The position numbers and the translations under genes were made by a program. The notes under the pieces were generated by a model. That model was not told the DNA's origin, did no database searches, and was given only the letters and a program-made list of their open reading frames with translations. From positions 1 to 15,654 of the forward strand of contig JBKPCR010000512.1 of the NCBI GenBank assembly GCA_046727435.1: a DNA stretch of 15,654 nt, given 5' to 3'. The first letter of the stretch is position 1. Every line of letters begins with the position of its first letter. Shown piece after piece: positions 116-14,294 of the stretch. This DNA is from CAVPRW01 sp046727435 [NCBI: bacterium]. Its GTDB lineage: Bacteria; Tectomicrobia; Entotheonellia; J063.

Positions 116-158
116 TGATCTTGTTACCACTGTAGTACTAAAACCGCTTTTACATACT

Positions 159-197
159 GGGATTTTTTGCCCAAAGCGACGAAAAGGTATATTTCAG
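159..197 (+). repeat. Tn3-family left terminal inverted repeat
   Basis: The repeat starts GGGATTTTTTGCCC and continues with AAAGCGACGAAAAGG. It is identical to the reverse complement of 8231-8269 except at repeat positions 4 (A versus G) and 36 (T versus C). The length of 38-39 bp and the G-rich outer end fit the Tn3 family. The inner edge lies 32 bases beyond the stop of tnpA. Confidence 0.9.
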
Positions 198-229
198 ACT
201 TAGCCGGTCATAACCTGCCAGACTGGGAA

Positions 230-3200
230 CTAGGCTAACTCCCGGACAATCCCATTGATGTTGATCGTTTCCGGCCCGTTGCAAAACTCGTAACGCCCAT
301 ACAAATTGATGTGCTGCCAAGCTACCGGGGAAATGTGCTTGAGCAAGGCTGCTTCCTGAACGTCCCCCGCTGCTTCCCTATAATCCAGGAGGCTGGATAA
401 GAGCATTGTATTGTAGTAGATGATGCAGTTCGTCAGCAGACGTGCACATTCGCCCCAGATTTGTTGCTCATGCTCTGTCTTGAACCGCAGCTTGCCGAAG
501 TTGGCGTGCGAGACGGCTCGGCGCAGCTGATGGTAACTCTCGCCCCGGTTGAGAGCCTGCTGGACATTGCGCCTGAGAGGCGGTGAGTCAATGTAGTCAA
601 GCAGGTACAAGCTGCGGAAGATGTTGTCATATTCCCATAGGGCGCGCCGCGTCTTGTTTTTTCGAGCAAAGGCACTCAGCTTGCGAACGATGGTGCTCTG
701 CGTGGTCGTCTTCAAGGCCAACGACACCATAATCCGCTGAATATTCTCCCACTCCTCGATGATGAGCTCAGGGCTTAGTTTACGGATGGGCTTGAGCACC
801 ATGTCCTCATCATACTGGCTTGGGTGTTTGAATCCATAGAGTGCTTCGCCGACCTCGTCATAAATATCCCGGTAGCGTGGCGCGAACTGATAGCCAAACA
901 TATTGAGGATGGCGAAGTTGACCTCGTTGGTGCCGTGTGTATCAGTAGAATGGATTTCGGGTTGGATATCGGTGGTATTGTTAAACAAGATATCGAACAC
1001 GTAGTGGCTTTCATGGTCGTTGGCACAAATGATCTCTGCATTGATGGGGACATGGTTGGCCACCAAAGTATACGAGACAATGCCTTTTTTGAGTCCGAAA
1101 TACTTGGGTGAATGGCGGGCATTGATGGTATGAATGCGAGTTTCGAATTTCTGCCCATCGCTACTGGAATGGAGGGCATCGCGGATATCATAATGCCCAA
1201 AGATGGGGAGCTCGGCGATTGCATTACTGACCCGATCGTTGGCGGCTTTGAGAGTTTCCAGGCGGATGAAATTCTCCGAGGTTGTCGACAGCGCCTGATA
1301 CCCGATATCCGAGACTTCCCCCATCCGACCCAATCCCAGGTTGGTGCCCCAGGCAATGAGACAAGCCGTCAGGGTGAGGTCATCCACCCCCTGTTTGACA
1401 TAGCGCCCCAAGACATGATCAAAGGCTTCCATAAAGCGACAGTGCCGATTGACGAAATGCAGCACGCTGCTGATGTCGACCTGTTTGAGTGCATCGAAGC
1501 AGGGATGGTTGATCAGCTCAGCGCTACGGGGATACTGCAGGGTCCACCGGGTTTGTGACCCGCGCTTTTTGATCTCAAAATGTGTATTGTCACCTGAGGC
1601 AATCCGTTGATTGACCTGGATGAGGCGGTCTTCAAGTTGCGTTTCGAGTGCGGCGAGGTGTTCCCGAATCGGCTGCTTGAGGAGCGGGAGGCCCGTGTTG
1701 GCAATCAGGTTTTCCTTGTCTTTCCACCTGTCGTCATCGATTAGGTCGTCTTCGAAACTCTGGAAGCGGACGCTATCGCGGCAGAAGACATCGCCCGCTT
1801 CCAAGCCGTTGCGCAAGAGACGATAGTCCAGAAACTCATAGCGGTCTGGGAGCACGTGCCTCTGACCATGCGCGCCTTGGGTATAGAGATAGCGTTTGGC
1901 AGTGTCGGGAATGAAGCTTAGGGGGTAAGCGTATGGAGGATATTGACTGAGCGGCCGTCCTTTCTGGAAGGCATCCTTCAGAAACGTCACGGCTTCGATC
2001 AAAGTGGTGTGCCCGGCTGACGCCGTCCAATCGACCGCCAGCAGAAGGGGGCGTACATGGCGTTTAAACTGGTGGGCTAGTTCATCCATGTGCTCCCATT
2101 GAAAGGCTGTTTCATCGAACTTCACTGTGGTGGTGATGTGGTCGGCGACGAAGTCGATTTTATCGCGCTCAAGAATACTGAATGCCTTTGCCCGGACTTG
2201 GTGGAAGGGGGTTTGCTGGGGAATACCGTCATCCGTGAAAAGTTTCAGCACTTGCCCGGCCCGGTCGAGGTCCTCGTTGCCCTCGGAGCGAGACTCATAC
2301 ACGCGATCTTTGGCGACCGTCTTTGCAGCTTCATGGTATCGTCTGACATGATGGATGAGGCTACTCATCAAATGGTCATGCAATCGCTGGTAGCGGTGAT
2401 ACACAAAGCACAAGAGGTAGACGTGGGCTGTCGCCTCCTCGAACCGTTTGAGCTTATAGACCGAGTAGTAGCCGACTAAGGAAGCATAGTATTTGACGCT
2501 CTCCTGTGAGATGCCCAGATCAGGCAACAGGCTTTTGGCCAGGTGGTACAAGTCCCGTATCTGTTCACCCCGACGGATTTCACGTGTGATTTCACTGGCG
2601 CTGAAATCTTTTGGCTCCCGTCTGAGCTGTGTGATTTCATAGAGCTCCGGCGTGTCCTCCAAGAGGCGGTCGAGGGCCTCTCGATGAGACCGATCGAGCC
2701 GATGAGAGATGACGGCGGCCAACCGTTCCTGCTCGTGCGTCAGCGCCTGACTGACGGTGTCTTGCATAAAGCTGTAGCCTGGCGCCACGATGCGTTGCTC
2801 TTTCAGATAGTGCATGAGCTCTCGGAAGACAAAGACGGGCTTTGCTGAAATCCTGGCCGCTTGTTGTGCTCTTTGGGCCAAGGCCTGACGCTGCCCAACA
2901 TCGCATGTACGGTAACGGAAGAGTTCGAGAATCACGCTCTGCTGTCTCAATCGAGTCACCTTGGTAATATCAAGATCATCGAGATGGAAATCGGGGAAAT
3001 ATTGTCCCTGGACAAACTGTGCGTCCTCTTCAACGTCGAGAAGATCGAACACAAAAAACATGTGGTGAGATTTGAAGTAGCCAAGCTGTAGAATGAAATA
3101 TATCCGGGACTTGATCGAGTGGAACTGTTCGAGCGCCGCCTTTTCCGTCGGCGCAAGTGTAAAATACTCAAGGCGTTCGTCGTCAGCAAAGTGAGGCTGT

Positions 3201-3262
3201 CCATACAGCGCTTCGATTTCGTCATCCCCCAGAATTTTCAGACGTACTCCCGTCGTGTTCAT
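230..3262 (-). CDS. tnpA: Tn3-family transposase TnpA
   Basis: This 1010-residue protein has the usual length of Tn3-family transposases (about 1000 residues) and catalyses replicative transposition by DDE chemistry at the 38-bp ends. The N-terminal part corresponds to the DNA-binding/DUF4158 region. The catalytic domain is C-terminal. I read the triad as D702 (SSDGQKFE), D774 (STDTHGTNE) and E908 (NRGES), with spacing close to that of Tn3 itself. The ATG at 3260-3262 has a GAGGG ribosome site about ten bases upstream. The gene ends with TAG 32 bases inside the left repeat. It looks intact with no internal stops, so the transposon may still be mobile. The left copy of the internal inverted repeat lies about 50 bases upstream of its start and may overlap its promoter. 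Confidence 0.95.
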   Translation of the reverse strand: MNTTGVRLKILGDDEIEALYGQPHFADDERLEYFTLAPTEKAALEQFHSIKSRIYFILQLGYFKSHHMFFVFDLLDVEEDAQFVQGQYFPDFHLDDLDITKVTRLRQQSVILELFRYRTCDVGQRQALAQRAQQAARISAKPVFVFRELMHYLKEQRIVAPGYSFMQDTVSQALTHEQERLAAVISHRLDRSHREALDRLLEDTPELYEITQLRREPKDFSASEITREIRRGEQIRDLYHLAKSLLPDLGISQESVKYYASLVGYYSVYKLKRFEEATAHVYLLCFVYHRYQRLHDHLMSSLIHHVRRYHEAAKTVAKDRVYESRSEGNEDLDRAGQVLKLFTDDGIPQQTPFHQVRAKAFSILERDKIDFVADHITTTVKFDETAFQWEHMDELAHQFKRHVRPLLLAVDWTASAGHTTLIEAVTFLKDAFQKGRPLSQYPPYAYPLSFIPDTAKRYLYTQGAHGQRHVLPDRYEFLDYRLLRNGLEAGDVFCRDSVRFQSFEDDLIDDDRWKDKENLIANTGLPLLKQPIREHLAALETQLEDRLIQVNQRIASGDNTHFEIKKRGSQTRWTLQYPRSAELINHPCFDALKQVDISSVLHFVNRHCRFMEAFDHVLGRYVKQGVDDLTLTACLIAWGTNLGLGRMGEVSDIGYQALSTTSENFIRLETLKAANDRVSNAIAELPIFGHYDIRDALHSSSDGQKFETRIHTINARHSPKYFGLKKGIVSYTLVANHVPINAEIICANDHESHYVFDILFNNTTDIQPEIHSTDTHGTNEVNFAILNMFGYQFAPRYRDIYDEVGEALYGFKHPSQYDEDMVLKPIRKLSPELIIEEWENIQRIMVSLALKTTTQSTIVRKLSAFARKNKTRRALWEYDNIFRSLYLLDYIDSPPLRRNVQQALNRGESYHQLRRAVSHANFGKLRFKTEHEQQIWGECARLLTNCIIYYNTMLLSSLLDYREAAGDVQEAALLKHISPVAWQHINLYGRYEFCNGPETININGIVRELA

Positions 3263-3314
3263 ACGCCGTTACCCTCGCTTGCTTCAAGGACGAGTTCGCC
3301 ATCCGCATAGAAAG

Positions 3315-3366
3315 GTGTAGAGGGTCACTGTCACTGTGCGACAGCGATTCACGGATAAGAGCCCGA
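3315..3366 (+). repeat. Internal inverted repeat, left copy
   Basis: The repeat starts GTGTAGAGGGTCACTG and matches the reverse complement of 7561-7616. The first 36 aligned bases differ at about five positions and similarity then fades. It contains the palindrome CTGTC-N7-GACAG at 3328-3344, a layout compatible with a tyrosine recombinase core site (inverted arms, 6-8 base spacer). It lies between the tnpA start and the end of the nucleotidase gene. Confidence 0.75.
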
Positions 3367-3407
3367 CACCCATGGTCGTACCTGAGCTCACGGATGGGGC
3401 ATGCACG

Positions 3408-5087
3408 TTACGGGACGGCGGTAATCCGATTCTGCGGACCAGGGGTGATGGGAGAGTGCGTCCGGAAGTACGCTTCGAACGCATCCAAATCCTGGACGCC
3501 GCCCAGGCGGTCAGTCCCTTCCCGGAGCGCGAGGAAGTGATCACCGCCGTCGGCGAGGAAGCTATTGACGGTCACCCGATAGGTGGCATTGAGATCGATG
3601 GCCACCCCCTTGATCTTGATACTCGCGAGGTCCACCTTGCCGCACGTCGGAGCGCTCCGGCTCCAGGCGTAGGTCAATCCCGCCGAGACCTGCAGCATGC
3701 GGTCTCGATTCTGGGTCCCGCACCCCTGAAACTGCTGCTCCAGCACAGTCTTCAGCTGCCGCCCGGTCAACGTCATGGTCACCAAGCTATTGCCGAATGG
3801 TTGCACCGTGAAGGCTTCCCCATACGTCACGTGACCATCGCCTTCACTCCCGCTTTGCGCGTAGGCTAGATCGGCGCGGATACCGCCCGGATTCATGAGC
3901 GCCACCACCGCCCCGCCAACCGCCGGGTCCGCGGTGGCCGCCCACTGCGCATCCGCAATCACATCTCCCAACGCGGACTCGCCTGCTGGGGTGGGATCGC
4001 GGGTGTGATCCGCCGTAATGGAGCCAATCACACGGTTGGCTAACGGCGCCACCAGGGTCTGGTATGTGTCCACCAGCGCGGTGAGCCGGGTGTCCGAGGG
4101 CACCTCGCGGGTCACGATGCGATTGTTCGCCTGCATGCGGACCACATCGCCGGTGGCGCGGTCAATGGTCAGGTCCACATCGGTCACGACTCGGCCGAAC
4201 GAGGACGCGCTGGTGACGAGCATGCCATTGAGGTGGCAGTTGTACGCCTGATGGGTATGACCGCTGATGACCACATCGACCGCGGGATCAAAGCGATGCA
4301 CAATATCCACGATCGCACCGGAAAGGCCCAGGCACTCATTGTACGTGCCCGTGGGGAAGCCGCCCTCGTGGATCAACACGACGATCGTTTCAATGCCCTG
4401 GGCCTTCAATGACGGGACCAGGGCATTGACCGTCTCGGCCTCATCCGTAAACGTCAGACCGGCCACGCCGGACGGCGTCACGATGGTCGGCGTGCCCTGG
4501 AGGGTCATCCCGATAAAGGCCACTTTGGCGCCGGCAAAACTGCGCACCTGATACGCCGGGAACAGGGTCGTGGCGGTGTCATGGCGGACGACATTGGCCG
4601 CCAGGAACTGGAACGTGGCCCCCGCAAACCCGTCTCCATCCCGACAACCGTCCACAGGGTGACACCCCCCGTGTTGCATCCGCAGCAATTCCGCGGCGCC
4701 TTCGTCGAACTCGTGATTGCCGACCGCGTTGTACTCGAGACCGAGCACATTAAAGGCCTCAATGGTTGGCTCGTCATGGAAGAGCGCGGAAATCAACGGG
4801 CTGGCGCCGATCAGGTCGCCGGCAGAGACCACCACGGTGTGGGGGTACTGGGCCCGCAGGGCCTGAATGTGCGCCGATAGATAGGCCACCCCCCCAGCCG
4901 GGATGTTCCGACCATCGGGCTCCGTGATGGTGCCACTCGGGCCGACGAGGTGGCCATGGAAATCATTGACGGCCAGAATGTGGACGCTCACGGTCCCCGA
5001 AGGCATAGTGCTCACAGGCACCGCCAATATGGAGAACACCAGCGTCAGCGCGATCACGAGCGGCCACCTGCGGAGTTCTTTTTTCAT
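3408..5087 (-). CDS. Exported bifunctional metallophosphatase / 5'-nucleotidase
   Basis: The predicted product of 559 residues belongs to the UshA/5'-nucleotidase family, which hydrolyses nucleoside monophosphates and related nucleotides in the periplasm or at the cell surface. I chose the ATG at 5085-5087 because GGGGAGAGG lies just upstream and it starts a clear signal peptide: basic residues 1-7, hydrophobic core about 9-25. An in-frame extension to 5141 would spoil this. The metal-binding motifs of the calcineurin-like domain are all present: NDFHGH (D42, H44), GDLIGASP (D91), GNHEFDEG (N124, H125) and SGHTHQ (H277, H279). The C-terminal half is the substrate-binding 5'-nucleotidase domain, with NPGGIRADL and LADGGDHF. 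It appears intact. As cargo between transposition genes it is unusual, and a role in scavenging phosphate or nucleosides is the family expectation, not shown here. Confidence 0.93.
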   Translation of the reverse strand: MKKELRRWPLVIALTLVFSILAVPVSTMPSGTVSVHILAVNDFHGHLVGPSGTITEPDGRNIPAGGVAYLSAHIQALRAQYPHTVVVSAGDLIGASPLISALFHDEPTIEAFNVLGLEYNAVGNHEFDEGAAELLRMQHGGCHPVDGCRDGDGFAGATFQFLAANVVRHDTATTLFPAYQVRSFAGAKVAFIGMTLQGTPTIVTPSGVAGLTFTDEAETVNALVPSLKAQGIETIVVLIHEGGFPTGTYNECLGLSGAIVDIVHRFDPAVDVVISGHTHQAYNCHLNGMLVTSASSFGRVVTDVDLTIDRATGDVVRMQANNRIVTREVPSDTRLTALVDTYQTLVAPLANRVIGSITADHTRDPTPAGESALGDVIADAQWAATADPAVGGAVVALMNPGGIRADLAYAQSGSEGDGHVTYGEAFTVQPFGNSLVTMTLTGRQLKTVLEQQFQGCGTQNRDRMLQVSAGLTYAWSRSAPTCGKVDLASIKIKGVAIDLNATYRVTVNSFLADGGDHFLALREGTDRLGGVQDLDAFEAYFRTHSPITPGPQNRITAVP

Positions 5088-5204
5088 GCCCCTCTCCCCG
5101 GCGATGACATCCGTTCCATGGGTGGTGCGGCGGCCTGCCACGGGCGGTCATGTCGTGGCCATGGCGCCACCGTGACGGCCCGTCTGTTCGGTTCGTGAGC
5201 CTGA

Positions 5205-5220
5205 CCCCGCCACGGCGGGG
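5205..5220. repeat. Short perfect GC hairpin in the 5142-5361 gap
   Basis: The perfect palindrome CCCCGCCACGGCGGGG lies in the 220-bp gap between the nucleotidase and the recombinase. There is no following T-run, so it is a poor intrinsic terminator on either strand, although it would fold in the RNA downstream of the recombinase. I see no gene in this gap. Confidence 0.4.
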
Positions 5221-5361
5221 TGCGAGCGGCGCATGACAATAGCCGGGGATATCCTCCCGCCCATTGACGCTTCCTGAGGGCACCGCTCTGCGCCGTGCTC
5301 CATGCCACGCGTCTGGTCGAAGGGCGTGGGACGTCGCACCGTTCCTGACATGCGCACCTGC

Positions 5362-6066
5362 TCACCCCGCCAGCGCCCGCTGATAGCTCTCCTTGATCAT
5401 CTCAGCCGATGACTCGGCATAGATCTGCGTCGTCTCCAGCTTGGAGTGCCCCAGAAATTTCTGGATCTGCTCGATGGGCATGCCCCGTTCCAGCAGCGTG
5501 GTTGCCACTGAGTGGCGGAGCAGATGCGGGTAGACCCGCTTGGTGATCAGCGCGTCTGTGGCCGTCTCCTTGATAATCTGCTGAATGCGCCGCGGCGAAT
5601 ACTGCGTATTCTGGACCGTCTCGAAGAGATACCCCGTGGTGCGATGGCCCAGATGGGTTCTCAGCTCCTGGGCCAGCTGTGGGAGAATCGGCACATACCG
5701 ACTCTTGCCGCCCTTGGCCTTGGCGATCAACATCATCTGCTCCTCAAAGAACACCTCGTCGGCTTTGATGTTCACAAACTCCGAGACCCGGGCGCCAGTC
5801 TGGAACAGCGTCTTAATCAGCAGCCCTCGCGTGCCCTGCACGCGGTAGGCATGGGCAATGAGCTGGCGCTCCTCTTCCCGAGAGAGCGGAGCGACCACTC
5901 TCTTTCTCGTCTTGGGCCGTTCGATGGCCAAGGCACGGCGCACTTCCTTGGCCACATAGTGGGTCTGATCATAGGTCAGATGGTGTTGCCGCCACAATTT
6001 TTTGGTGGCCGCGATGACTGATTTGAGGTCTGGAGATGATTTCGCTTTTGCAGATGTAGTACGCAT
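5362..6066 (-). CDS. Tyrosine recombinase / integrase, 234 aa
   Basis: This is a phage-integrase/XerD-type site-specific recombinase that cuts and rejoins DNA through a tyrosine. The catalytic set is complete: R93 (GARVSE), K118 (AKGGKSR), H181 and R184 (HLLRHS), H207 (LGHSKLETT) and nucleophile Y216 (IYAE). A short N-terminal core-binding region (about residues 15-55) precedes the catalytic domain, so the protein is smaller than XerC/XerD (about 300). It starts at an ATG with AAGGA five bases before it and is driven by an excellent promoter (6081-6109). It is divergent from the IS481-type transposase. Likely roles are cointegrate resolution or inversion at the internal inverted repeats. The substrate site is inferred. 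Confidence 0.9.
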   Translation of the reverse strand: MRTTSAKAKSSPDLKSVIAATKKLWRQHHLTYDQTHYVAKEVRRALAIERPKTRKRVVAPLSREEERQLIAHAYRVQGTRGLLIKTLFQTGARVSEFVNIKADEVFFEEQMMLIAKAKGGKSRYVPILPQLAQELRTHLGHRTTGYLFETVQNTQYSPRRIQQIIKETATDALITKRVYPHLLRHSVATTLLERGMPIEQIQKFLGHSKLETTQIYAESSAEMIKESYQRALAG

Positions 6067-6080
6067 AAGTCCTTGGTTTG

Positions 6081-6109
6081 AGTATACTGGAGGTCGAAAA
6101 ACCCGTCAA
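6081..6109 (-). promoter_or_regulatory. Sigma-70 type promoter of the 234-aa recombinase
   Basis: On the minus strand TTGACG (6104-6109) and TATACT (6081-6086) are separated by exactly 17 bases. The expected transcript start falls near 6074, only about eight bases before the ATG at 6066, so the mRNA would be nearly leaderless and the AAGGA at 6070-6074 would sit at its very 5' end. Confidence 0.7.
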
Positions 6110-6187
6110 AACTCGGCGCCCATTTCGCTCTTCAGGTGTTCTGCGAAATCGGATTGTACACCTTTTTGAGGTGGATGTGTCACTGCT

Positions 6188-7273
6188 ATGATGACGCCAT
6201 CATCCTATGGTCTTGCACCAGAGGAACAGCGCCTGCAGGCCGTGCTGGCACTCTTGAGGGGAGAGAAGGCCTCAGACGTGTCGACCAACTTCGGTATCTG
6301 CCGCAGCGACCTCTACAAATTGCGCACGCGAGCGCTCACCGCGATACGCGAAGCACTCCAGGATCATCCCCGCGGGCCCAAGCGACCAGGCAACCGGATC
6401 AGTGATGCGCAGGAGCAGCAGGTCGTGGTGGTATGCCAACGCCACCCGACTCACAGCTCCTATCAGATACAGAAAAAGCTTGGGTCATATGCTCCCTGTG
6501 CCCGCACGATTCAGCGCATCCGTGCTCGTAACCATCTGGCACGGCTCCCGAAGCGCGCTCCCCCCTCAGCCCCGGCACGACGGATAGCGGCACAGGTCAT
6601 GAAGCGGGCGCGATATTGTCTCAAGCTAAGGCCGCACCTGGGGCCAGAGCGCGTCGTGTGGGATCTGCGCAATGGTGAGCAGCTGGAGATCAGCACATCC
6701 ACAATTAAGCGCCTCAAGCGCAAGATTCGCGATACCCTCCATCCTGCTCCGCCGAGGCGACCTTCGCCTGTATGGCGGTTCTATGAACGCCAGCATCCCC
6801 ACAGCCTCTGGCATGTTGACTTCATGGACAAAATCACGCTCACCGATACCCAGCAGGTTGCCCACCAACTCACGCTGCAGGATGACTACTCGCGGGGGTA
6901 CGTCTTCTGCGATCTTGCCTTCGACCACGATCAACGCACCGTGATCCGGGCGCTCATGGCCGCCATGCGGCAGTGGCAGGTGATCCCCAAGGCCATGCTC
7001 TCTGACAATGGCTCACCGTTTAAGGGCACGCTCATCACGACGTTCTGCAGGAAGCTGGGTATTCGTCTCATCCACAGCGCCGTCCGACATCCCCAAACTA
7101 ACGGCAAACTGGAGCGGGCCTTCCAGGATGATATGCGGGACTTCTATGGGCAGTACGATGCGTGGCTGTTGGATCACTTGCGCCACGATCTACCCTCATA
7201 TGTGCAGTATCGCAATGGCGTCCGCGGCCATAAAGCATTGGACGGAAAGCCATCCATCACCAGATTACAATAG
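6188..7273 (+). CDS. IS481-type (rve) transposase, ended by a premature TAG
   Basis: The 361-residue product has an N-terminal helix-turn-helix region (about 10-60), a second HTH-like region (about 75-130) and an integrase core with the DDE triad D211 (WHVDF), D273 (LSDNGS) and E309 (NGKLERAF). The 35-residue spacing between the second D and the E is that of IS481/IS3-type enzymes. The frame stops at TAG 7271-7273 right after the core, but coding-like sequence continues in the same frame (see 7274-7597), so the stop is probably a nonsense mutation that removes the C-terminal domain. Two adjacent ATG codons at 6188 and 6191 could both serve, and the best ribosome site, GAGGTGGA, is rather far upstream. 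It is divergent from the tyrosine recombinase, with 121 bases between them. Confidence 0.85.
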   Translation: MMTPSSYGLAPEEQRLQAVLALLRGEKASDVSTNFGICRSDLYKLRTRALTAIREALQDHPRGPKRPGNRISDAQEQQVVVVCQRHPTHSSYQIQKKLGSYAPCARTIQRIRARNHLARLPKRAPPSAPARRIAAQVMKRARYCLKLRPHLGPERVVWDLRNGEQLEISTSTIKRLKRKIRDTLHPAPPRRPSPVWRFYERQHPHSLWHVDFMDKITLTDTQQVAHQLTLQDDYSRGYVFCDLAFDHDQRTVIRALMAAMRQWQVIPKAMLSDNGSPFKGTLITTFCRKLGIRLIHSAVRHPQTNGKLERAFQDDMRDFYGQYDAWLLDHLRHDLPSYVQYRNGVRGHKALDGKPSITRLQ

Positions 7274-7597
7274 TACACCGAGAAAGCACCGGCTCATATT
7301 CTTGACCGGCTTGAGAGCTACGCCGTGTATGAGATCGGGCGGCAGAGAGCGCACATGGATGGGTCCATTCGGGTCCTGGGACGGCCTGCCCAGCTTGATG
7401 CTCGACTGTGCGGACAGAACGTGACCATGTACGAGACCTTGCGAGGGCTGGAGGCAAAGACGCAGGAGGGGCGCTGGTATCTCTTCGCGGATTACCAGCG
7501 TTTCCGGCAGCTCAGTTGTACCGCTCCCTGGAATATGCCGACGAGCTTCTCGTTCGAAAGATGTCAGGGCTACTGTCCGCGAATTGCTGTCGCATAA
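7274..7597 (+). pseudogene. Detached C-terminal part of the IS481-type transposase
   Basis: Reading on past the TAG in the same frame gives 107 residues to a TAA at 7595-7597. The first half (LDRLESYAVYE, MDGSIRVLG, RPAQLDARLCGQNVTMYE) resembles the small beta-rich domain that follows the rve core in IS481/IS21-like transposases. The last 30 or so residues look less protein-like and overlap the internal inverted repeat. No good start codon with a ribosome site opens this piece, so it is not expected to be made alone. Confidence 0.6.
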
Positions 7598-7616
7598 TAA
7601 CAGTGACCCTCAACAC
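7561..7616 (-). repeat. Internal inverted repeat, right copy
   Basis: The reverse complement of this stretch matches 3315-3366, including GAGGGTCACTGT and GCGACAGC. Here the inner palindrome is imperfect: CTGTT-N7-GACAG. It ends 23 bases before the start codon of the second tyrosine recombinase and overlaps the tail of the transposase frame. Confidence 0.75.
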
Positions 7617-7639
7617 TATCCTCGTATGATGACGAACTC

Positions 7640-8188
7640 ATGGAAACGAGGGAGGCCAACGTGGCCTATCAGTATGTCAGGGAGCCTCTGCGAGCCCAGG
7701 AGGCCGATGCGCTGGCTCACGCCTGTGAAACCACCGAAGAGAAACTCATTGTTTGGACGCTCATCGACACCGGTCTTCGGGTGTCCGAGCTCTGCAGTCT
7801 CACATCACAACACATACTCTGGTAGCAGAAAGCGTTGCGGATACAGGGCAAGGGGGGGCCGTACGGCAAACGGTCAAAACATCGGGTGGTGCCCATGTCC
7901 AGGCGCCTTCGACCCTTGATGGAGCATTACTTTGCCCTTCATGCAAGGTGGTTTGTCGGACCTCGGCAGGTGCAGAAAATTGTCAAACGGGTAGCCAACC
8001 GGGCCAAAATCACCCAAGATGTGACACCGCATGTGTTGCGGCACACGTTCGCGACACTGACTCTTCAGAAGAACATCTCACTGGCTGCGATTCAGAAAAT
8101 CCTCGGGCATGACCGGCTTACCACCACTGCCATCTATCTGAATCTCACCGACACGCATGTCGTCGAAGAATACGAGCAAAAGTGGTAG
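7640..8188 (+). pseudogene. Short tyrosine recombinase interrupted by an in-frame TAG
   Basis: The frame encodes a catalytic-domain-only tyrosine recombinase of 182 residues if the TAG at 7823-7825 (position 62) is read through. Catalytic residues lie on both sides of the stop: R47 (TGLRVSEL) before it, and K71 (GKGGPYGK), H131/R134 (HVLRHTF), H157 (LGHDRLTTT) and Y166 (AIYLNL) after it. Neither half can be active alone. The surrounding pattern (HILW-stop-QKALRIQGKGG) suggests the stop replaced a glutamine CAG. The gene reads away from tnpA and ends 42 bases before the right terminal repeat, the position of the resolvase gene in a Tn3-family element. The cointegrate resolution step may therefore be lost, unless the 234-residue recombinase replaces it. 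Confidence 0.85.
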
Positions 8189-8230
8189 GACTGAGTTTGT
8201 CTGGGGATTCGCCCTCGCTCAGTGCAAGAC

Positions 8231-8269
8231 CTGGAATATACCTTTTCGTCGCTTTGGGCAAAAAACCCC
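8231..8269 (-). repeat. Tn3-family right terminal inverted repeat
   Basis: This is the inverted partner of 159-197, with two differences in 39 bases. The outer end reads CCCC on the plus strand. The bases that follow are AAATACT, so the left-flank 5-mer ATACT occurs two bases beyond the repeat instead of touching it. Confidence 0.9.
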
Positions 8270-8309
8270 AAATACTAATTTGTCACGAACTAGTATCAAT
8301 CCAGTATAG

Positions 8310-8871: not shown

Positions 8872-11800
8872 GTGGCTGACTATCATTTCACCCCGTCTCT
8901 GCGGGCGCACTTCAAACGCGTCTTCGATTGCATCGTGCATCGCAAAGGGCAGGGCTTTTGGGTTCAGGCCGAATACGGCGCCGGCAAGACACATTTTCTT
9001 GGCGCGCTCATCGATCTCCTCATCTGGCGTGACGCAGACGTTTGGGACGCCGTACGCGATGCCGAGATCAAAAGCGAATATGCGAAGGAACGGTTTGCGT
9101 TCATCTACGAGCAGATTACCAAGGTCGGGGGCTACGACGGCATGCTCTTCGTCGTAGACGAGTTCCGCTCCTGGCAAGACCGCCATGTGGCGGGCACCAC
9201 GGCCTATGCCGAGGATGAGGAGGTCCTCGAGACCCTGGCGTTCGTCTTGCCTTCCCAGCATTGCACCAGCGTCACGCTGATCGCCAGCCAGGGGGATATG
9301 CCGCAAAAGCTGTCAGGGGGTGGCGAGGGCGATCGCTTTATCCCCTTATATCTTCTGGCGGACAAGAACAAAGGGGACTTCGGCGAGATCGTCGGATTCC
9401 GATGCCGGGAGCTGAGCCCGGGAGCAGCGACTGACATCAAGGGTTACTACGACTACTGCCGCAAAGAGTATCGCTTCATTAGGCAATCCAACATCTCTCT
9501 CGAATACTTTACAGCCATCTTCCCCTTTCAGCCGCGGTGCTTCGACGTCATGCGACGGATGACACAGAACGCCGAGCGGCATAACCTCCCGACAGCCCGC
9601 TCGGCCATCTGTATGGCCTGGCAGACCCTGTCAAATCCAGTGCTGTTAAAGGGCAAGCGCCTCCTGACGCTGGCAGACATCATGCACAGCGATGAACTGC
9701 AGAAGGGCCTGAATTCTGAGCACTACCACGACGGCTATGTCAACTTCTGTGGGGCGATCGAGCAGCTGTCCGAGCTGGACATCGCTCCCGAAGAGCGTGA
9801 GCAGGCCCAGCGCCTGGTCGAGACCCTGTACCTGTGGGGCATCAGTCTGCCGGAGAACTTGCGAGACGGTCTCACTGCCCAGGAAGCGGCGGAGGCGACA
9901 TGGCTCTCGGACGATGCCGTAGGCGCGACGGCCCAGGCTGAGCATTTGCTGGAAAAGTTAGTACAGGGTGGTTTTCCCATCCGGGAAGAGAAGAGAACAC
10001 GGGACGGCAAGGAGGTGGCGATCTATGCCTACGAAATCTCGGCCGCCCAAGAGTCGCCGGTCAGATACTGTGCTCCACTCAAGAAGATAGCGACGCAAGA
10101 CCTCAAGGGGCAGAATAGCAAATGGCTGGAGAGCCTCTTTTGGCAGCTCCCAGATATTACGCCAGAGGCCCAGCAGGAGCTCGGAGCCGATGGTGGTAAC
10201 CTTGGAGGCTTTCAGCCCCAGGACCAGAGGTCGGCCCGCGACCAGCAAGAGGGCAAGCCGCCGGCATACGCTTTCCCACACCGCGCCGGGGCATCCACAC
10301 GACGCGAGCACAAGGTCTCCTACAGCGGTGAGGTGGTAGTGTGCGAGCGCTGGCGCGAGGAGTTCGGCAAGGAGATCGACAACCTCGACCAGCACTTCCG
10401 ATTGGTCTACCTGACCGGCCATCCAGACCTGGACGACGCCAAGATCGCTGCCGCTCTGAAGGATGCGCGGATCGCCGTCATGCGGCCCGAGGCCCTCGGT
10501 GAGGATACACGGGAGGCCCTGGCCGACCTGATGGCCGCCGAGCAGATGAAGCGCAACTGCTGGGCGCCGAATCAGAGCACCTTGCGTGAGTACGCCAACG
10601 GAAAGCGGCGTGAGGCGCTCAAGGCGGTGCTGAAGTGCCAACAGGATGAGTATCGGCGGGGCAAGGTGATCACGCAAAAAGCCTATGGCATTCCCGCCGT
10701 CGAAATTTTCAGATCGACGCAGAGACGGGAGGAGGATCTGGCAGGTCGGCTGCTGGAAAAAGCCTACGATACCCCGTTGTTCAGCCCCAGGGATCTTCGC
10801 AAGGAGTTTTCAGACGCGGACGCCAAGGAGGTCTTCGCCGGCCTCTTCCACAAGGACCCTGCCAGGGCGGAAAAAGATGCGGTGACCAACTTCGCCACCG
10901 GTCTCGAGCTCGTTGCCAAGTCACATCCTGCCGAGTTCAACCCGACCGCCTCACAGGCTCTGGCCAAGGTGTGCGAGCAGATGGCAGGACGATCGGACCG
11001 GCCCTTGTCTGATCTGAAGGCGGCTCTGTGTCGTCTACCCTACGGGCTGACAGAGTCGATGGTGACGCTGTACGTCTTCGCGCTGATCAAGTCAGGGGGC
11101 TTCGAGCTGGCTCTCAATCCGAATGCTGGGGTCACGCTCAGCGACGGCCGGCCCGTACCAGGCGATCGACTCACGGCGCATACCCTACCCCTGTGTGAGT
11201 GGAACGCCCGGCTCGACAGAGCCCTTCTCGGCTCCCGACTCGTCGAATCGCTGCACAAGGGGTGGAATGAAGTCCTCCCTTACGCGCGCATTCTCGACCC
11301 CGACCTGAAGCCTGCCACCACCCCCGACGAGGAGCAGGCGCGCGACGAGTCGCTCCTGGAGACCCTCGCACAGTTGCAATCTGAGATCCCTGAGGTGGAA
11401 AAGAGCCTGGTCAAACTGGCCGGTGTTCTCAATGGTTCTATGCCGCCAAGTCTCAAGGAGATCCTGGCACGCTATCGCGGCCTGGCGACTGCCGCCAGCT
11501 ACCAGGAATTCGATGCGGCCGTGCGCGAGAGCTATGCCGACAGGAACGCCTTTGCCGTGGCACATACACAGTACGACAGGGCGCGCAAAGTGCGCGACTG
11601 TGCCTTCCAGGTAAGCCAGATGGTCGATTACCTGAACAGGGCATGCGCCGTAGTCGAGGACATCGAGTTCGAGCGCGCGGCGCTCCTGAGTATGCTTGGC
11701 TTTGAGGCGATGCTGCATGACCCATCGCTTATTGGGGCACGAGAGCAAACCTTCGCCCGCTGGAAGACGCGCTACGTCCATGCCTACCGTAAGGCGCATC

Positions 11801-11895
11801 GGGCGCACTACGAGGCCGTGGCTGACCTGGCTGCGAAGCTGGACAGCCTGCGTCCCATAAGTACAAGCCCTAACACGGATAAATGGCATCCTTGA
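8872..11895 (+). CDS. Large P-loop ATPase, DUF499/DUF6079 (BrxC/PglY-like), probably a damaged gene
   Basis: The 1007-residue frame opens with a phage-defence type ATPase domain: Walker A AEYGAGKTHF (about 33-42, K39) and Walker B GMLFVVDEF (D96, E97), followed by SWQDRH. Large ATPases of this type accompany DNA methylases in BREX-like and DUF1156/DUF499 loci; the family name is my judgement, not a search result. The GTG at 8872 is only the first usual start. The frame is open back to a TGA at 8791, and residues encoded from about 8830 (SLAQAITRTKARETV) look like family sequence, so the true start was probably removed at the junction with the Tn3 fragment. Only about 55 residues lie between Walker A and B, which is short. 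The 3' end is frameshifted near 11858. Confidence 0.72.
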   Translation: MADYHFTPSLRAHFKRVFDCIVHRKGQGFWVQAEYGAGKTHFLGALIDLLIWRDADVWDAVRDAEIKSEYAKERFAFIYEQITKVGGYDGMLFVVDEFRSWQDRHVAGTTAYAEDEEVLETLAFVLPSQHCTSVTLIASQGDMPQKLSGGGEGDRFIPLYLLADKNKGDFGEIVGFRCRELSPGAATDIKGYYDYCRKEYRFIRQSNISLEYFTAIFPFQPRCFDVMRRMTQNAERHNLPTARSAICMAWQTLSNPVLLKGKRLLTLADIMHSDELQKGLNSEHYHDGYVNFCGAIEQLSELDIAPEEREQAQRLVETLYLWGISLPENLRDGLTAQEAAEATWLSDDAVGATAQAEHLLEKLVQGGFPIREEKRTRDGKEVAIYAYEISAAQESPVRYCAPLKKIATQDLKGQNSKWLESLFWQLPDITPEAQQELGADGGNLGGFQPQDQRSARDQQEGKPPAYAFPHRAGASTRREHKVSYSGEVVVCERWREEFGKEIDNLDQHFRLVYLTGHPDLDDAKIAAALKDARIAVMRPEALGEDTREALADLMAAEQMKRNCWAPNQSTLREYANGKRREALKAVLKCQQDEYRRGKVITQKAYGIPAVEIFRSTQRREEDLAGRLLEKAYDTPLFSPRDLRKEFSDADAKEVFAGLFHKDPARAEKDAVTNFATGLELVAKSHPAEFNPTASQALAKVCEQMAGRSDRPLSDLKAALCRLPYGLTESMVTLYVFALIKSGGFELALNPNAGVTLSDGRPVPGDRLTAHTLPLCEWNARLDRALLGSRLVESLHKGWNEVLPYARILDPDLKPATTPDEEQARDESLLETLAQLQSEIPEVEKSLVKLAGVLNGSMPPSLKEILARYRGLATAASYQEFDAAVRESYADRNAFAVAHTQYDRARKVRDCAFQVSQMVDYLNRACAVVEDIEFERAALLSMLGFEAMLHDPSLIGAREQTFARWKTRYVHAYRKAHRAHYEAVADLAAKLDSLRPISTSPNTDKWHP

Positions 11896-13168: not shown

Positions 13169-13672
13169 GGCTTTTACGCGTCTGTCCTCATGCTGAATCG
13201 TCTGTCGAGCTTCCGCGGAGAGTCGGAGACTCTGAAAGGGGTACGCCCGGTTTGGAGGGGGCGGAGGGAACTGTACCAGCCATGGCCACTCGTCAGCCGC
13301 TTCCCACGTTCTCGCGGACGAGAACAACCAGCGGGGAAGGCAGAGCAGCATGGCGGTACCCAGGAGCCCACCGCACTGTCGACGCGGGGAAGCTGGACGG
13401 CTGAAGAAAGGTGCGGCCGGGCGCGTGATCAGTACCGGAGCCGTTCGAGTTGATCGGAGTCAGGAGCTGAGGGGAGTCGTGCTGAGGTAGGGGAGCCATG
13501 ACGCCCCGCCGGTGCCTCATGGACCTTCGCAAACCCATCCGAGCGGGGTGACACGACGCATAGGGTCGTTGTGCGATAGCGTCTCAAGCTCTGCTCGGCA
13601 CCCTACAGCACCTGCCTTGCACCGCCGTCAGCTTGGGGAGCGACCACCATTCTCGAGTTGCTGGGGTCACCG
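13169..13672 (+). other. No recognisable gene
   Basis: These 504 bases hold several short open frames on both strands, none of which I recognise or can support with a start signal. A perfect 7-bp inverted repeat with a 4-base loop (GTTCTCG/CGAGAAC) lies at 13308-13325 and the second copy of GGGGAGTCGTGCTG at 13471-13484. This is probably decayed mobile DNA. Confidence 0.4.
13308..13325. repeat. Perfect 7-bp stem hairpin
   Basis: GTTCTCG, loop CGGA, CGAGAAC. No T-run follows on either side, so a terminator is not supported. Confidence 0.35.
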
Positions 13673-13951
13673 ATGGCAGCCGGACAGGATCGGAGGGTCG
13701 AGCAGATCATTGTCAGCGTCCCGCTTGACCCGTATCTGTCCTTGAAAGCCCTGGCGACCTATAGCGGGCTCAGCGTGCGAAAGCTCCGGAATTGTCTGCG
13801 CCATCCTAGCCATCCGTTACCCCATTATCGCGTGGACGGGAAGATCTTGATCCGTCGCTCTGAGTTTGACATCTGGATAGCGGCCTACCGCCGGGTAGGA
13901 GATCCCGACGTCGATCAGATCGTTGACGATGTCATGGCGAAGCTGGATTGA
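13673..13951 (+). CDS. Excisionase-like helix-turn-helix protein
   Basis: The 92-residue protein has a MerR/excisionase-type winged HTH: LSLKALATYSGLSVRKLRNCL as the helix-turn-helix (about 23-43), followed by a wing with HYRVDGKILIRRSEFDIW. Small proteins of this kind usually sit directly before an integrase gene of a genomic island and act in excision or as regulators. Here the next gene is an integrase remnant, which agrees. The ATG at 13673 was preferred over the in-frame TTG at 13658; neither has a strong ribosome site. The frame is intact. Confidence 0.75.
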   Translation: MAAGQDRRVEQIIVSVPLDPYLSLKALATYSGLSVRKLRNCLRHPSHPLPHYRVDGKILIRRSEFDIWIAAYRRVGDPDVDQIVDDVMAKLD

Positions 13952-14051
13952 CAAGCGGAATGCTGAGGGCTATGCTGCGCCCCACTTGGAGGCGCTGCGC
14001 TGAAGGAGGCGTCGGACATGCCTCAACGTAGCTGTTGAAGAAGAACGGATC

Positions 14052-14294
14052 ATGGCCAACCCCGCGGCCCGTGTGGAGAAATGCATTTCAATGCTGATCC
14101 AAGGGGGGGAAAGCCTGGTCTATGTCAAAGAACAGCTCGGACACCATTCTATTAAGATCACCGTGGACGTATACGGGCATCTCATCCCCGGCACGAACAA
14201 GGCGGCAGTGGACCGGTTAGATAAGGCAACCGGACGCAACCCCCACGCAACCGACCTCTGGTCAGGGCTCCGGGTTGTACAAGGAGGACAATAA
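14052..14294 (+). pseudogene. Tyrosine integrase, C-terminal remnant
   Basis: Eighty residues match the end of a tyrosine integrase: GESLVYVKEQLGHHSIKIT and TVDVYGHLIPG with the catalytic histidine (H31) and nucleophile tyrosine (Y41), followed by NKAAVDRLDKATGRN. The first catalytic arginine, the lysine and the HxxR motif are missing, along with the N-terminal domains, so it cannot recombine DNA. The position 100 bases after the excisionase-like gene indicates a former xis-int pair whose integrase lost its 5' part by deletion. The first ten or so residues before LIQGGES are unlike the family and mark the junction. Confidence 0.78.

What the first reader, a model, noticed from the sequence alone, without database searches (positions are those of the whole stretch)
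3315..7616. A second, inverted-repeat-bounded 4.3-kb block inside the Tn3 element
The pair 3315-3366 / 7561-7616 is about 85% identical over its first 36 bases and encloses a nucleotidase, a complete tyrosine recombinase and an IS481-type transposase. It can be read as a nested transposon carrying its own recombinase and an enzyme as cargo, which is an unusual gene set for an IS481-type element. It can also be read as two inverted core sites that allow the block to flip between tnpA and the second recombinase. The CTGTC-N7-GACAG palindrome in the left copy favours recombinase sites. TGT...ACA ends and the overlap with the transposase frame favour a transposon. No target duplication is visible.
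Basis: partly seen in the sequence, partly recalled or inferred. Interest (0 to 1): 0.62.

Follow-up and report, generated by a model that had tools for sequence, protein, structure and literature searches.

The report
Transposon inside another transposon's recombination site
A 4.3-kb jumping gene that carries its own site-specific recombinase and an enzyme appears to have landed inside the recombination site of a larger jumping gene of a different family, which suggests that it looks for such sites.

Summary
The inverted repeats are real. They bound a 4,300-bp block (3316-7615, TGT...ACA) with ends 40/49 identical.

The nested-transposon reading is supported; the invertible-block reading is not. 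The block holds an IS481-type DDE transposase, a tyrosine recombinase (rec1) and a nucleotidase. A TTCG-N16-CGAA site lies between rec1 and the transposase, as upstream of 7 of 9 rec1 relatives; one relative partners a Tn3 transposase.

The flanks are the new result. Relatives of the outer Tn3's recombinase (rec2) carry a TTCG-N17-CGAA-type core upstream in 13 of 14 loci with enough sequence. The window has no intact one. Instead TTCG-N17 abuts the block's left end and N17-CGAA its right end, the N17s directly repeated (10/17). Joined without the block, the flanks look like a normal core (mean 17.5/25 identical; cores among themselves 17.0/25).

So the block most likely transposed into the rec2 core with a long (about 17 bp) target duplication. 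Published IS1202-group elements make 16-17-bp duplications, and their short-duplication relatives hunt dif sites.

One decayed copy was seen and no close relative found, so site hunting is inferred. New variant of a known kind.

The parts
158..8270 (.). Outer Tn3-family transposon (carrier), with 40-bp terminal inverted repeats 158-197 and 8231-8270
   Evidence: Inverted repeat I2, 95% complementary; flanking 5-mers CATAC (153-157) and AATAC (8271-8275) agree 4/5 (read)
230..3262 (-). tnpA of the outer Tn3 element, 1010 aa
   Evidence: NCBIfam transpos_Tn3 795.7 bits, cut-off 500; PF01526
3295..3315 (+). Left remainder of the rec2 core site: TTCG (3295-3298) + N17 (3299-3315)
   Evidence: N17 scores 13.8 on the distal-core matrix (leave-one-out range of members 8.4-18.9; a fraction of about 3e-5 of window 17-mers reaches it); coordinates
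3316..7615 (+). Inner element: 4,300-bp unit transposon, TGT...ACA
   Evidence: Ends and length; arms 40/49 identical
3316..3364 (+). Left terminal inverted repeat of the inner element
3408..5087 (-). Cargo: metallophosphatase/5'-nucleotidase (open frame to 5141; likely start ATG 5085-5087)
   Evidence: PF02872 2.9e-37, PF00149 4.5e-9
5362..6066 (-). rec1: tyrosine recombinase, 234 aa, of the kind that partners a Tn3 transposase in Aureispira
   Evidence: PF00589 1.3e-33; the nine best plasmid relatives are 40-43% identical over 87-97% of the length; Aureispira relative divergent from a Tn3 transposase
6124..6147 (.). Candidate rec1 core/resolution site TTCG-N16-CGAA (ATTTCGC...GCGAAAT) between divergent rec1 and transposase
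   Evidence: Only TTCG-N16-CGAA in the window; same element upstream of 7 of 9 rec1 relatives looked at
6188..7597 (+). IS481-type DDE transposase frame (D211, D273, E309); in-frame TAG 7271-7273, then 107 open codons to TAA 7595-7597
   Evidence: NCBIfam IS481 178.6 bits, cut-off 224; PF00665 and HTH matches; codon-position GC pattern continues after the stop; residues
7567..7615 (-). Right terminal inverted repeat of the inner element
7616..7636 (+). Right remainder of the rec2 core site: degraded N17 (7616-7632) + CGAA (7633-7636)
   Evidence: 10/17 identical to the left N17 in direct orientation; coordinates
7661..8188 (+). rec2: catalytic-only tyrosine recombinase (about 175 aa) of the outer element, broken by an in-frame TAG at 7823
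   Evidence: 69-75% identical to five relatives whose start aligns with GTG 7661; stop position

Best explanation
The block is a unit transposon with an IS481-type (rve/DDE) transposase and TGT...ACA inverted ends. It transposed into the core recombination site of the TnpI-like tyrosine recombinase (rec2) of an older Tn3-family transposon and left an unusually long target duplication, about 17 bp. The duplicated stretch is exactly the 17 bp between the two half-sites TTCG and CGAA. The block carries a nucleotidase as cargo and its own resolution module: a second tyrosine recombinase (rec1) divergent from the transposase, with rec1's candidate core site between the two genes. That is the layout of Tn3 transposons with divergent tnpA and recombinase genes. 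Shown from sequence: the ends, the gene content, the family core geometry, the split core at the flanks, and the rec1-type site between the two genes. Inferred: that the transposase aimed at a recombinase-bound core, that the 17-bp repeat is a true target duplication, and that rec1 resolves transposition cointegrates. The copy looks inactive now: the transposase frame and rec2 each hold an in-frame stop, and the target core is split.
For: Ends: 40/49 identical, TGT...ACA, score far above resampled controls. The transposase frame runs to within 18 bp of the right end. The published IS481 transposon TnRErm46 has IR TGTTGCGGGTCATGACGTTG (passages of PMC6794481); the right end here starts TGTTGAGGGTCACTG. 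Target: 13 of 14 rec2-family loci with 260 bp upstream and an intact start carry [T/G]TCG-N17-CGA[A/C] starting 118-212 bp before rec2, including L025 (= L057), where it lies between rec2 and a divergent Tn3 tnpA. The window has no TTCG-N17-CGAA. The left N17 matches the distal-core matrix as well as members do. Length 17 is the outlier among duplication lengths 2-30 (10/17; binomial 0.003). Flanks joined without the block around the left N17 match 11 distinct family cores at mean 17.5/25, against 17.0/25 among the cores and at most 15.5/25 for any contiguous 25-mer of the window. Duplication length: eight IS1202-group members have 16-17-bp TSDs (Table 7 of PMC10132070), and IS1202 TSD classes include 15-17 bp (passages of PMC10045372). 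Resolution module: TTCG-N16-CGAA at 6124 and in 7 of 9 rec1 relatives; Aureispira rec1 relative beside a Tn3 transposase.
Against: The two N17 copies agree only 10/17, while the inverted ends agree 40/49; a fresh duplication would be perfect. With the right N17 instead of the left, the joined site matches the cores at only 15.1/25, and the right N17 fits the distal matrix only weakly (1.68; 0.5% of window 17-mers reach it). The right half-site CGAA lies 28 bp before the rec2 start (a TTCG would fall at -49), where 9 of the 13 relatives have their proximal site (-37 to -68); their distal core is at -118 to -212. So about 100 bp must have been lost, or the right flank derives partly from the proximal site. 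Transposase family is not settled: IS481 model below its cut-off, and the E+7 residue is M, where IS1202 transposases have Q (PMC10132070). The TnRErm46-like end motif was found beside 0 of 5 plasmid IS481 transposases looked at, so it is no family-wide mark. A second inner transposase-binding repeat, as in ISAjo2-type IS, was not significant. No second copy and no close relative of the transposase were found.
Confidence: 0.7

Rival explanations
1. Tyrosine-recombinase integration: the block is an integrative element whose circular form recombined with the rec2 core (by rec1 or rec2). The two ends would then be attL (TTCG-N17-TGTAGAGGG) and attR (CCCTCAACA-N17-CGAA).
For: The geometry fits: each end is half a core site plus a spacer in direct orientation. 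The block-side half-sites CCCTCAACACTAT and CCCTCTACACCTT are inverted copies of each other (10/13, read).
Against: The inverted ends run about 49 bp, much longer than a half-site, and sit at the terminus of the transposase frame like IS481-type ends. rec1's own candidate core (TTCG-N16-CGAA) is inside the block at 6124, not at its ends. The central 9 bp, which should be identical, agree 5/9 (read).
Confidence: 0.15
2. Invertible segment: two complete inverted rec2 sites flank the block and let it flip.
For: Both arms carry GAGTTCGYCATC in inverted orientation outside the TIR, and the arm similarity extends to 73 nt at 75%.
Against: The family core needs TTCG and CGAA 17 bp apart (13 of 14 loci); each arm has only one of them. 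Inverted spacers agree 8/17, and 3/9 in the centre (read). rec2 is broken at 7823.
Confidence: 0.05
3. Simple IS plus bystanders: the transposase belongs to a roughly 1.4-kb IS with its left end just before 6188; nucleotidase and rec1 are remains of something else, and the left arm at 3316 is an older copy of the IS end.
For: A TIR-like stretch (13/15, GTCACTGCTATGATG) lies at 6179-6193, right before the transposase start; 0.7% of resampled 75-bp stretches score as high.
Against: Over the whole block interior the same score is reached in 22 of 100 resampled sequences. The left arm matches the right arm far better (40/49). Divergent rec1-core-transposase is a coherent module.
Confidence: 0.08

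Closest known systems
IS1202 / ISAjo2 family insertion sequences (PMC10132070)
   Same: TGT...ACA ends; DDE transposase of similar length (394-507 aa there, a 469-codon frame here); members that sit beside tyrosine-recombinase (dif/pdif) sites; members with 16-17-bp TSDs
   Different: None of the published IS is described as carrying a recombinase; three larger tIS carry one extra ORF without a recognised Pfam function. The dif hunters have 3-5-bp TSDs and sit 3-5 bp from the XerC site, not inside the core. No target was found for the long-TSD group. The E+7 residue here is M, not Q
IS481-type unit transposon TnRErm46 (PMC6794481)
   Same: IS481-type transposase at the right end, cargo genes on the left, inverted ends beginning TGTTGNGGGTCA
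   Different: 6-bp NCTAGN target repeats there; no recombinase among its seven ORFs; cargo includes a resistance gene, here a nucleotidase
Tn5053/Tn402 res-site hunters (PMC7765201)
   Same: Transposons with their own recombinase and res that insert into res sites of carrier transposons and so become nested
   Different: Those have tniABQ-res-tniR and 25-bp IRs; here a single IS481-type transposase, a tyrosine recombinase, and a tyrosine-recombinase core as target
TnpI/irs Tn3 transposons (Tn4430, Tn5401; PMC7157771)
   Same: Tyrosine recombinase with a core of inverted half-sites plus accessory sites next to its gene; rec1 and rec2 both look like such partners
   Different: rec1 accompanies an IS481-type transposase instead of a Tn3 TnpA; rec2 is catalytic-domain only

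Membership tests
IS481 family | Transposase passes the NCBIfam IS481 model | tested here: not met
   178.6 bits, cut-off 224; still by far the best family model (next: IS3, 75.9)
IS481 family | TGT...ACA inverted ends | tested here: met
   compare passages of PMC6794481
IS481 family | Short target duplication, mostly 6 bp (2-15 in ISfinder as quoted in PMC10045372) | tested here: not met
   Lengths 2-16 give at most 5 matches; 17 gives 10/17
[quoted passage not shown]
   E309, then M at +7
IS1202 family | Long TSD (16-28 bp) in the IS1202 group | tested here: inconclusive
   17-bp direct repeat but only 10/17 identical
IS1202 family | Second inner copy of part of the TIR (shown for ISAjo2 type) | tested here: inconclusive
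   Best common ungapped offset 24: 11/28 and 10/28; local scores matched by 58-59% of shuffles
IS1202 family | Beta-barrel and C-terminal domain after the DDE core | tested here: inconclusive
   A 107-codon in-frame extension with coding base pattern exists, but no Pfam family, and the model is unusable (mean pLDDT 40.5)
Tn3 family (outer element) | About 1000-aa Tn3 transposase, 38-40-bp IRs, 5-bp duplication | tested here: met
   795.7 bits; 40-bp IRs at 95%; flanks CATAC/AATAC agree 4/5 only; the 5-bp duplication length is recalled, the IR length is in PMC7157771
TnpI-type resolution module (rec1) | Tyrosine recombinase with an inverted-half-site core next to it, here between it and the transposase gene | tested here: met
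   ATTTCGC-GCGAAAT from 6122; same N16 site in 7 of 9 relatives, six of the seven from one species
TnpI-type resolution module (rec1) | Recombination of two directly repeated sites in cointegrates | not testable with these tools
   Needs an in vivo assay
Tn5053/Tn402 res-site hunters | tniABQ-res-tniR gene set | tested here: not met
   The block's three long frames are a transposase, a tyrosine recombinase and a nucleotidase; no tniB, tniQ or serine-resolvase frame was recognised among the three scanned

The most novel reading that the evidence does not exclude
A class of IS481/IS1202-like DDE transposons that hunts the core sites of TnpI-type tyrosine recombinases in other transposons, making roughly 17-bp duplications that span the recombinase crossover region. 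It has also taken up its own TnpI-type recombinase and core as a cointegrate-resolution module, so it behaves like a replicative Tn3-style unit built on an unrelated transposase. Its own core (TTCG-N16-CGAA) resembles the target core (TTCG-N17-CGAA), so recombinase-bound DNA could be the target signal, and carrying the recombinase could serve targeting as well as resolution.
Probability: 0.3. Interest if true: 0.68.

Novelty: new variant of a known kind. Interest (0 to 1): 0.5.

Why it matters
The paper that defined the IS1202 family found dif-site hunting only for short-duplication members and reported that no target could be recognised for the long-duplication group (PMC10132070, abstract and sections 11, 12, 17-20 read). 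This element is a concrete case of an insertion with an apparent 17-bp duplication centred exactly on a tyrosine-recombinase core. It gives a testable target rule: TTCG-N17-CGAA bound by a TnpI-like enzyme. It would extend 'res-site hunting', known for Tn5053/Tn402, to another transposase family and another recombinase class, and would show resolution modules being exchanged between unrelated transposon families. A by-product is a proposal for the recombination sites of two TnpI-like recombinase families (rec1: N16 core; rec2: N17 core plus, in most loci, a proximal site).

Tried and rejected
Looking for the block elsewhere failed. The transposase had no confirmed relative in a genome-contig scan or a viral-contig scan. 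None of 95, 251, 247, 274 and 194 genomes matched at E 1e-20 or 1e-25, and only weak matches (best 2.6e-5) came from 1 of 5 genomes. The tool warns that such empty answers show nothing without a positive control. Of 184 plasmid records with a match, the 30 listed were at most 31% identical; two phage records matched at 28-31% over 43-44%. The block DNA matched only nucleotidase or recombinase pieces in four plasmids. rec1: no relative in a viral scan, 0 of 95 genomes at 1e-45, 1 of 218 at 1e-40. The end pattern gave two viral-contig hits whose surroundings hold no relative of the block's genes, judged chance.

The structure model of the transposase was too poor to use and no fold search was run. 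The internal second transposase-binding repeat was not significant. A search for the TnRErm46-like end motif beside five plasmid IS481 transposases found it in none. CinA was used to place the host: 13 of 18 genomes matched, at 24-37% identity, so the host stays unknown. Comparing the right N17 with the proximal sites was not informative, because those are A+T-rich and the window is not. A recoded TAG was considered because both broken frames end in TAG; the 1010-aa tnpA without any internal TAG speaks against it.

Rows dropped before counts: 17 distinct rec2-family loci were found; three were left out of the 13/14 count (L060 with 90 bp upstream, L069 with none, L064 with a match starting at residue 86). 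Three of the 13 cores (L059, L061, L063) are identical, so there are 11 distinct cores. In some searches, nine rec1 relatives were looked at; L055 and L056 were fetched but not scored for the site. The matrices leave out the 55%-identical locus L058/L079.


Full report
What was checked. The pair is the longest inverted repeat listed for the window (I1, 3292-3364 / 7567-7639, 75% over 73 nt). It is 85% over 41 bp with E about 1e-4 by blastn and scores 56 against a maximum of 30 in 200 resampled controls. The strongly conserved part begins at TGT 3316 and ends at ACA 7615 (4,300 bp), with 40 of the first 49 positions identical between ends. The outer Tn3 element runs 158-8270, with 40-bp inverted repeats at 95% and flanks CATAC/AATAC. 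Its TnpA scores 795.7 bits on the Tn3 model.

Genes of the block. On the minus strand lie a metallophosphatase/5'-nucleotidase (PF02872, PF00149) and a 234-aa tyrosine recombinase, here rec1 (PF00589). On the plus strand lies a DDE transposase frame whose best NCBIfam model is IS481 (178.6 bits, below the cut-off of 224). The frame has the residues D211, D273 and E309 of a DDE triad (the assignment is by motif). It meets a TAG at 7271-7273 but stays open to TAA 7595-7597, inside the right repeat, with the same codon-position G+C pattern after the stop (0.60/0.48/0.67, against 0.63/0.45/0.69 before). So the frame probably once ran to the right end, as in the IS481-type transposon TnRErm46, whose published inverted repeat TGTTGCGGGTCATGACGTTG resembles the right end here, TGTTGAGGGTCACTG (passages of PMC6794481). 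That motif was not found beside any of five plasmid IS481 transposases.

The outer recombinase and its site. The recombinase right of the block (rec2) belongs to a family of about 175-aa, catalytic-domain-only enzymes. Five relatives are 69-75% identical, and their start aligns with GTG 7661. They occur beside a divergent Tn3 tnpA only about 30% identical to the window's in L025, on plasmids of Cardinium, Piscirickettsia and Megaira, in 2 of 229 genomes of one class (one of them the source of L025) and 6 of 140 of one order, and on four viral contigs at 69-70%. Of 17 distinct loci, 14 had 260 bp of upstream sequence and an intact start. Thirteen of these carry [T/G]TCG-N17-CGA[A/C] beginning 118-212 bp before the gene, each with TCC in the N17; L048 has none. 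Nine of those 13 also carry a second TNCG-N17-CGAA beginning 37-68 bp before the gene. These are read as a core and a proximal accessory site, by analogy with TnpI/irs (passages of PMC7157771); the assignment is inferred.

The split core. The window has no TTCG-N17-CGAA. Directly left of the block is TTCG + CCATCCGCATAGAAAGG (3295-3315); directly right is CTATCCTCGTATGATGA + CGAA (7616-7636). The left N17 scores 13.8 on the distal-core matrix (members 8.4-18.9 when left out; a fraction of about 3e-5 of window 17-mers reaches it), while the right N17 scores only 1.7. The two N17s agree 10/17 in direct orientation; among duplication lengths 2-30, 17 stands out (binomial 0.003). The two natural sites of one locus agree only 2-6 of 17. 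Joining the flanks around the left N17 gives a 25-mer that matches 11 distinct family cores at mean 17.5/25, the same as cores among themselves (17.0), and more than any contiguous 25-mer of the window (15.5); with the right N17 the mean is 15.1. This is the evidence for insertion into the core.

Weak points of that reading. A true duplication starts perfect, and 10/17 is poor beside ends that agree at 40/49. The right half-site CGAA lies 28 bp before rec2, where most relatives have the proximal site. So either about 100 bp between core and proximal site were lost, perhaps by recombination between the two, or the right flank is a hybrid. I could not decide this from one copy.

The inner resolution module. 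Between divergent rec1 and transposase lies ATTTCGC...GCGAAAT, TTCG-N16-CGAA at 6124-6147, the only such N16 site in the window. Upstream of rec1 relatives the same N16 site occurs in 7 of 9 examined (six Salinibacter plasmids and Aureispira). In Aureispira the relative is transcribed away from a Tn3 transposase. rec1 plus this site therefore looks like a Tn3-type resolution module attached to an IS481-type transposase. Its role in cointegrate resolution is inferred.

Comparison with what is known. In IS481 and IS1202 elements, TSD lengths fall into classes; most IS481 make 6 bp, and the IS1202 group shows 5-6, 15-17 or 24-29 bp (passages of PMC10045372; Table 7 of PMC10132070). PMC10132070 (abstract, sections 11, 12, 17-20 read) shows ISAjo2-type elements as dif-site hunters with 5-bp TSDs, finds the same for some relatives with 3-5-bp TSDs, and states that no target was found for the long-TSD group. 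By length (469 codons), ends and duplication the present element resembles the long-TSD group, but it fails the Q-at-E+7 mark (M), matches the IS481 model best and passes no family cut-off. I therefore do not file it in IS1202. It works like a res-site hunter, as Tn5053/Tn402 do (passages of PMC7765201), but without their gene set.

Verdict. The invertible-block half is unlikely. The copy looks dead and is the only one found, so targeting is a hypothesis with a clear test, not a result.

Noticed in passing
L025 (1-900); L047, L049 (around 5000); L061, L062, L063: A family of catalytic-domain-only tyrosine recombinases (about 175 aa) with a two-part TTCG-N17-CGAA recombination region occurs in a Tn3 transposon and on plasmids of intracellular bacteria, within about 2 kb of a ParA-family gene in one Cardinium and one Megaira plasmid. 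On plasmids it may resolve multimers.
   Followed up: partly
window 230-3262 and 7661-8188; L001, L003: Two relatives of this TnpA (62% in Cytobacillus, 49% in Desulfosarcina) have a 'recombinase family protein' next to them (read as serine recombinases), while this element has rec2, which in L025 sits beside a TnpA only about 30% identical. Resolution modules appear to be swapped between Tn3 backbones.
   Followed up: no
Probably decay.
   Followed up: partly
window 8872-11895: A 1007-aa open frame just right of the Tn3 element has a P-loop-like motif (GAGKT) near its start, no Pfam match and a very weak BrxC/PglY hint (E 0.004). It may be the remainder of a BREX-like ATPase whose start was lost.
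   Followed up: partly
window 13658-14294: A helix-turn-helix/excisionase-like frame (HTH_17, 1e-6) followed by a possible tyrosine-integrase C-terminal fragment (weak, E 0.13) next to cinA: perhaps remains of another integrated element.
   Followed up: no
L045 3608-3829: A 74-aa fragment of a TnpA 86% identical to the window's lies in a Candidatus Methylomirabilis MAG, the closest match to this TnpA in that scan; rec1, rec2, the transposase and the nucleotidase were not found on the 11.8-kb locus.
   Followed up: partly
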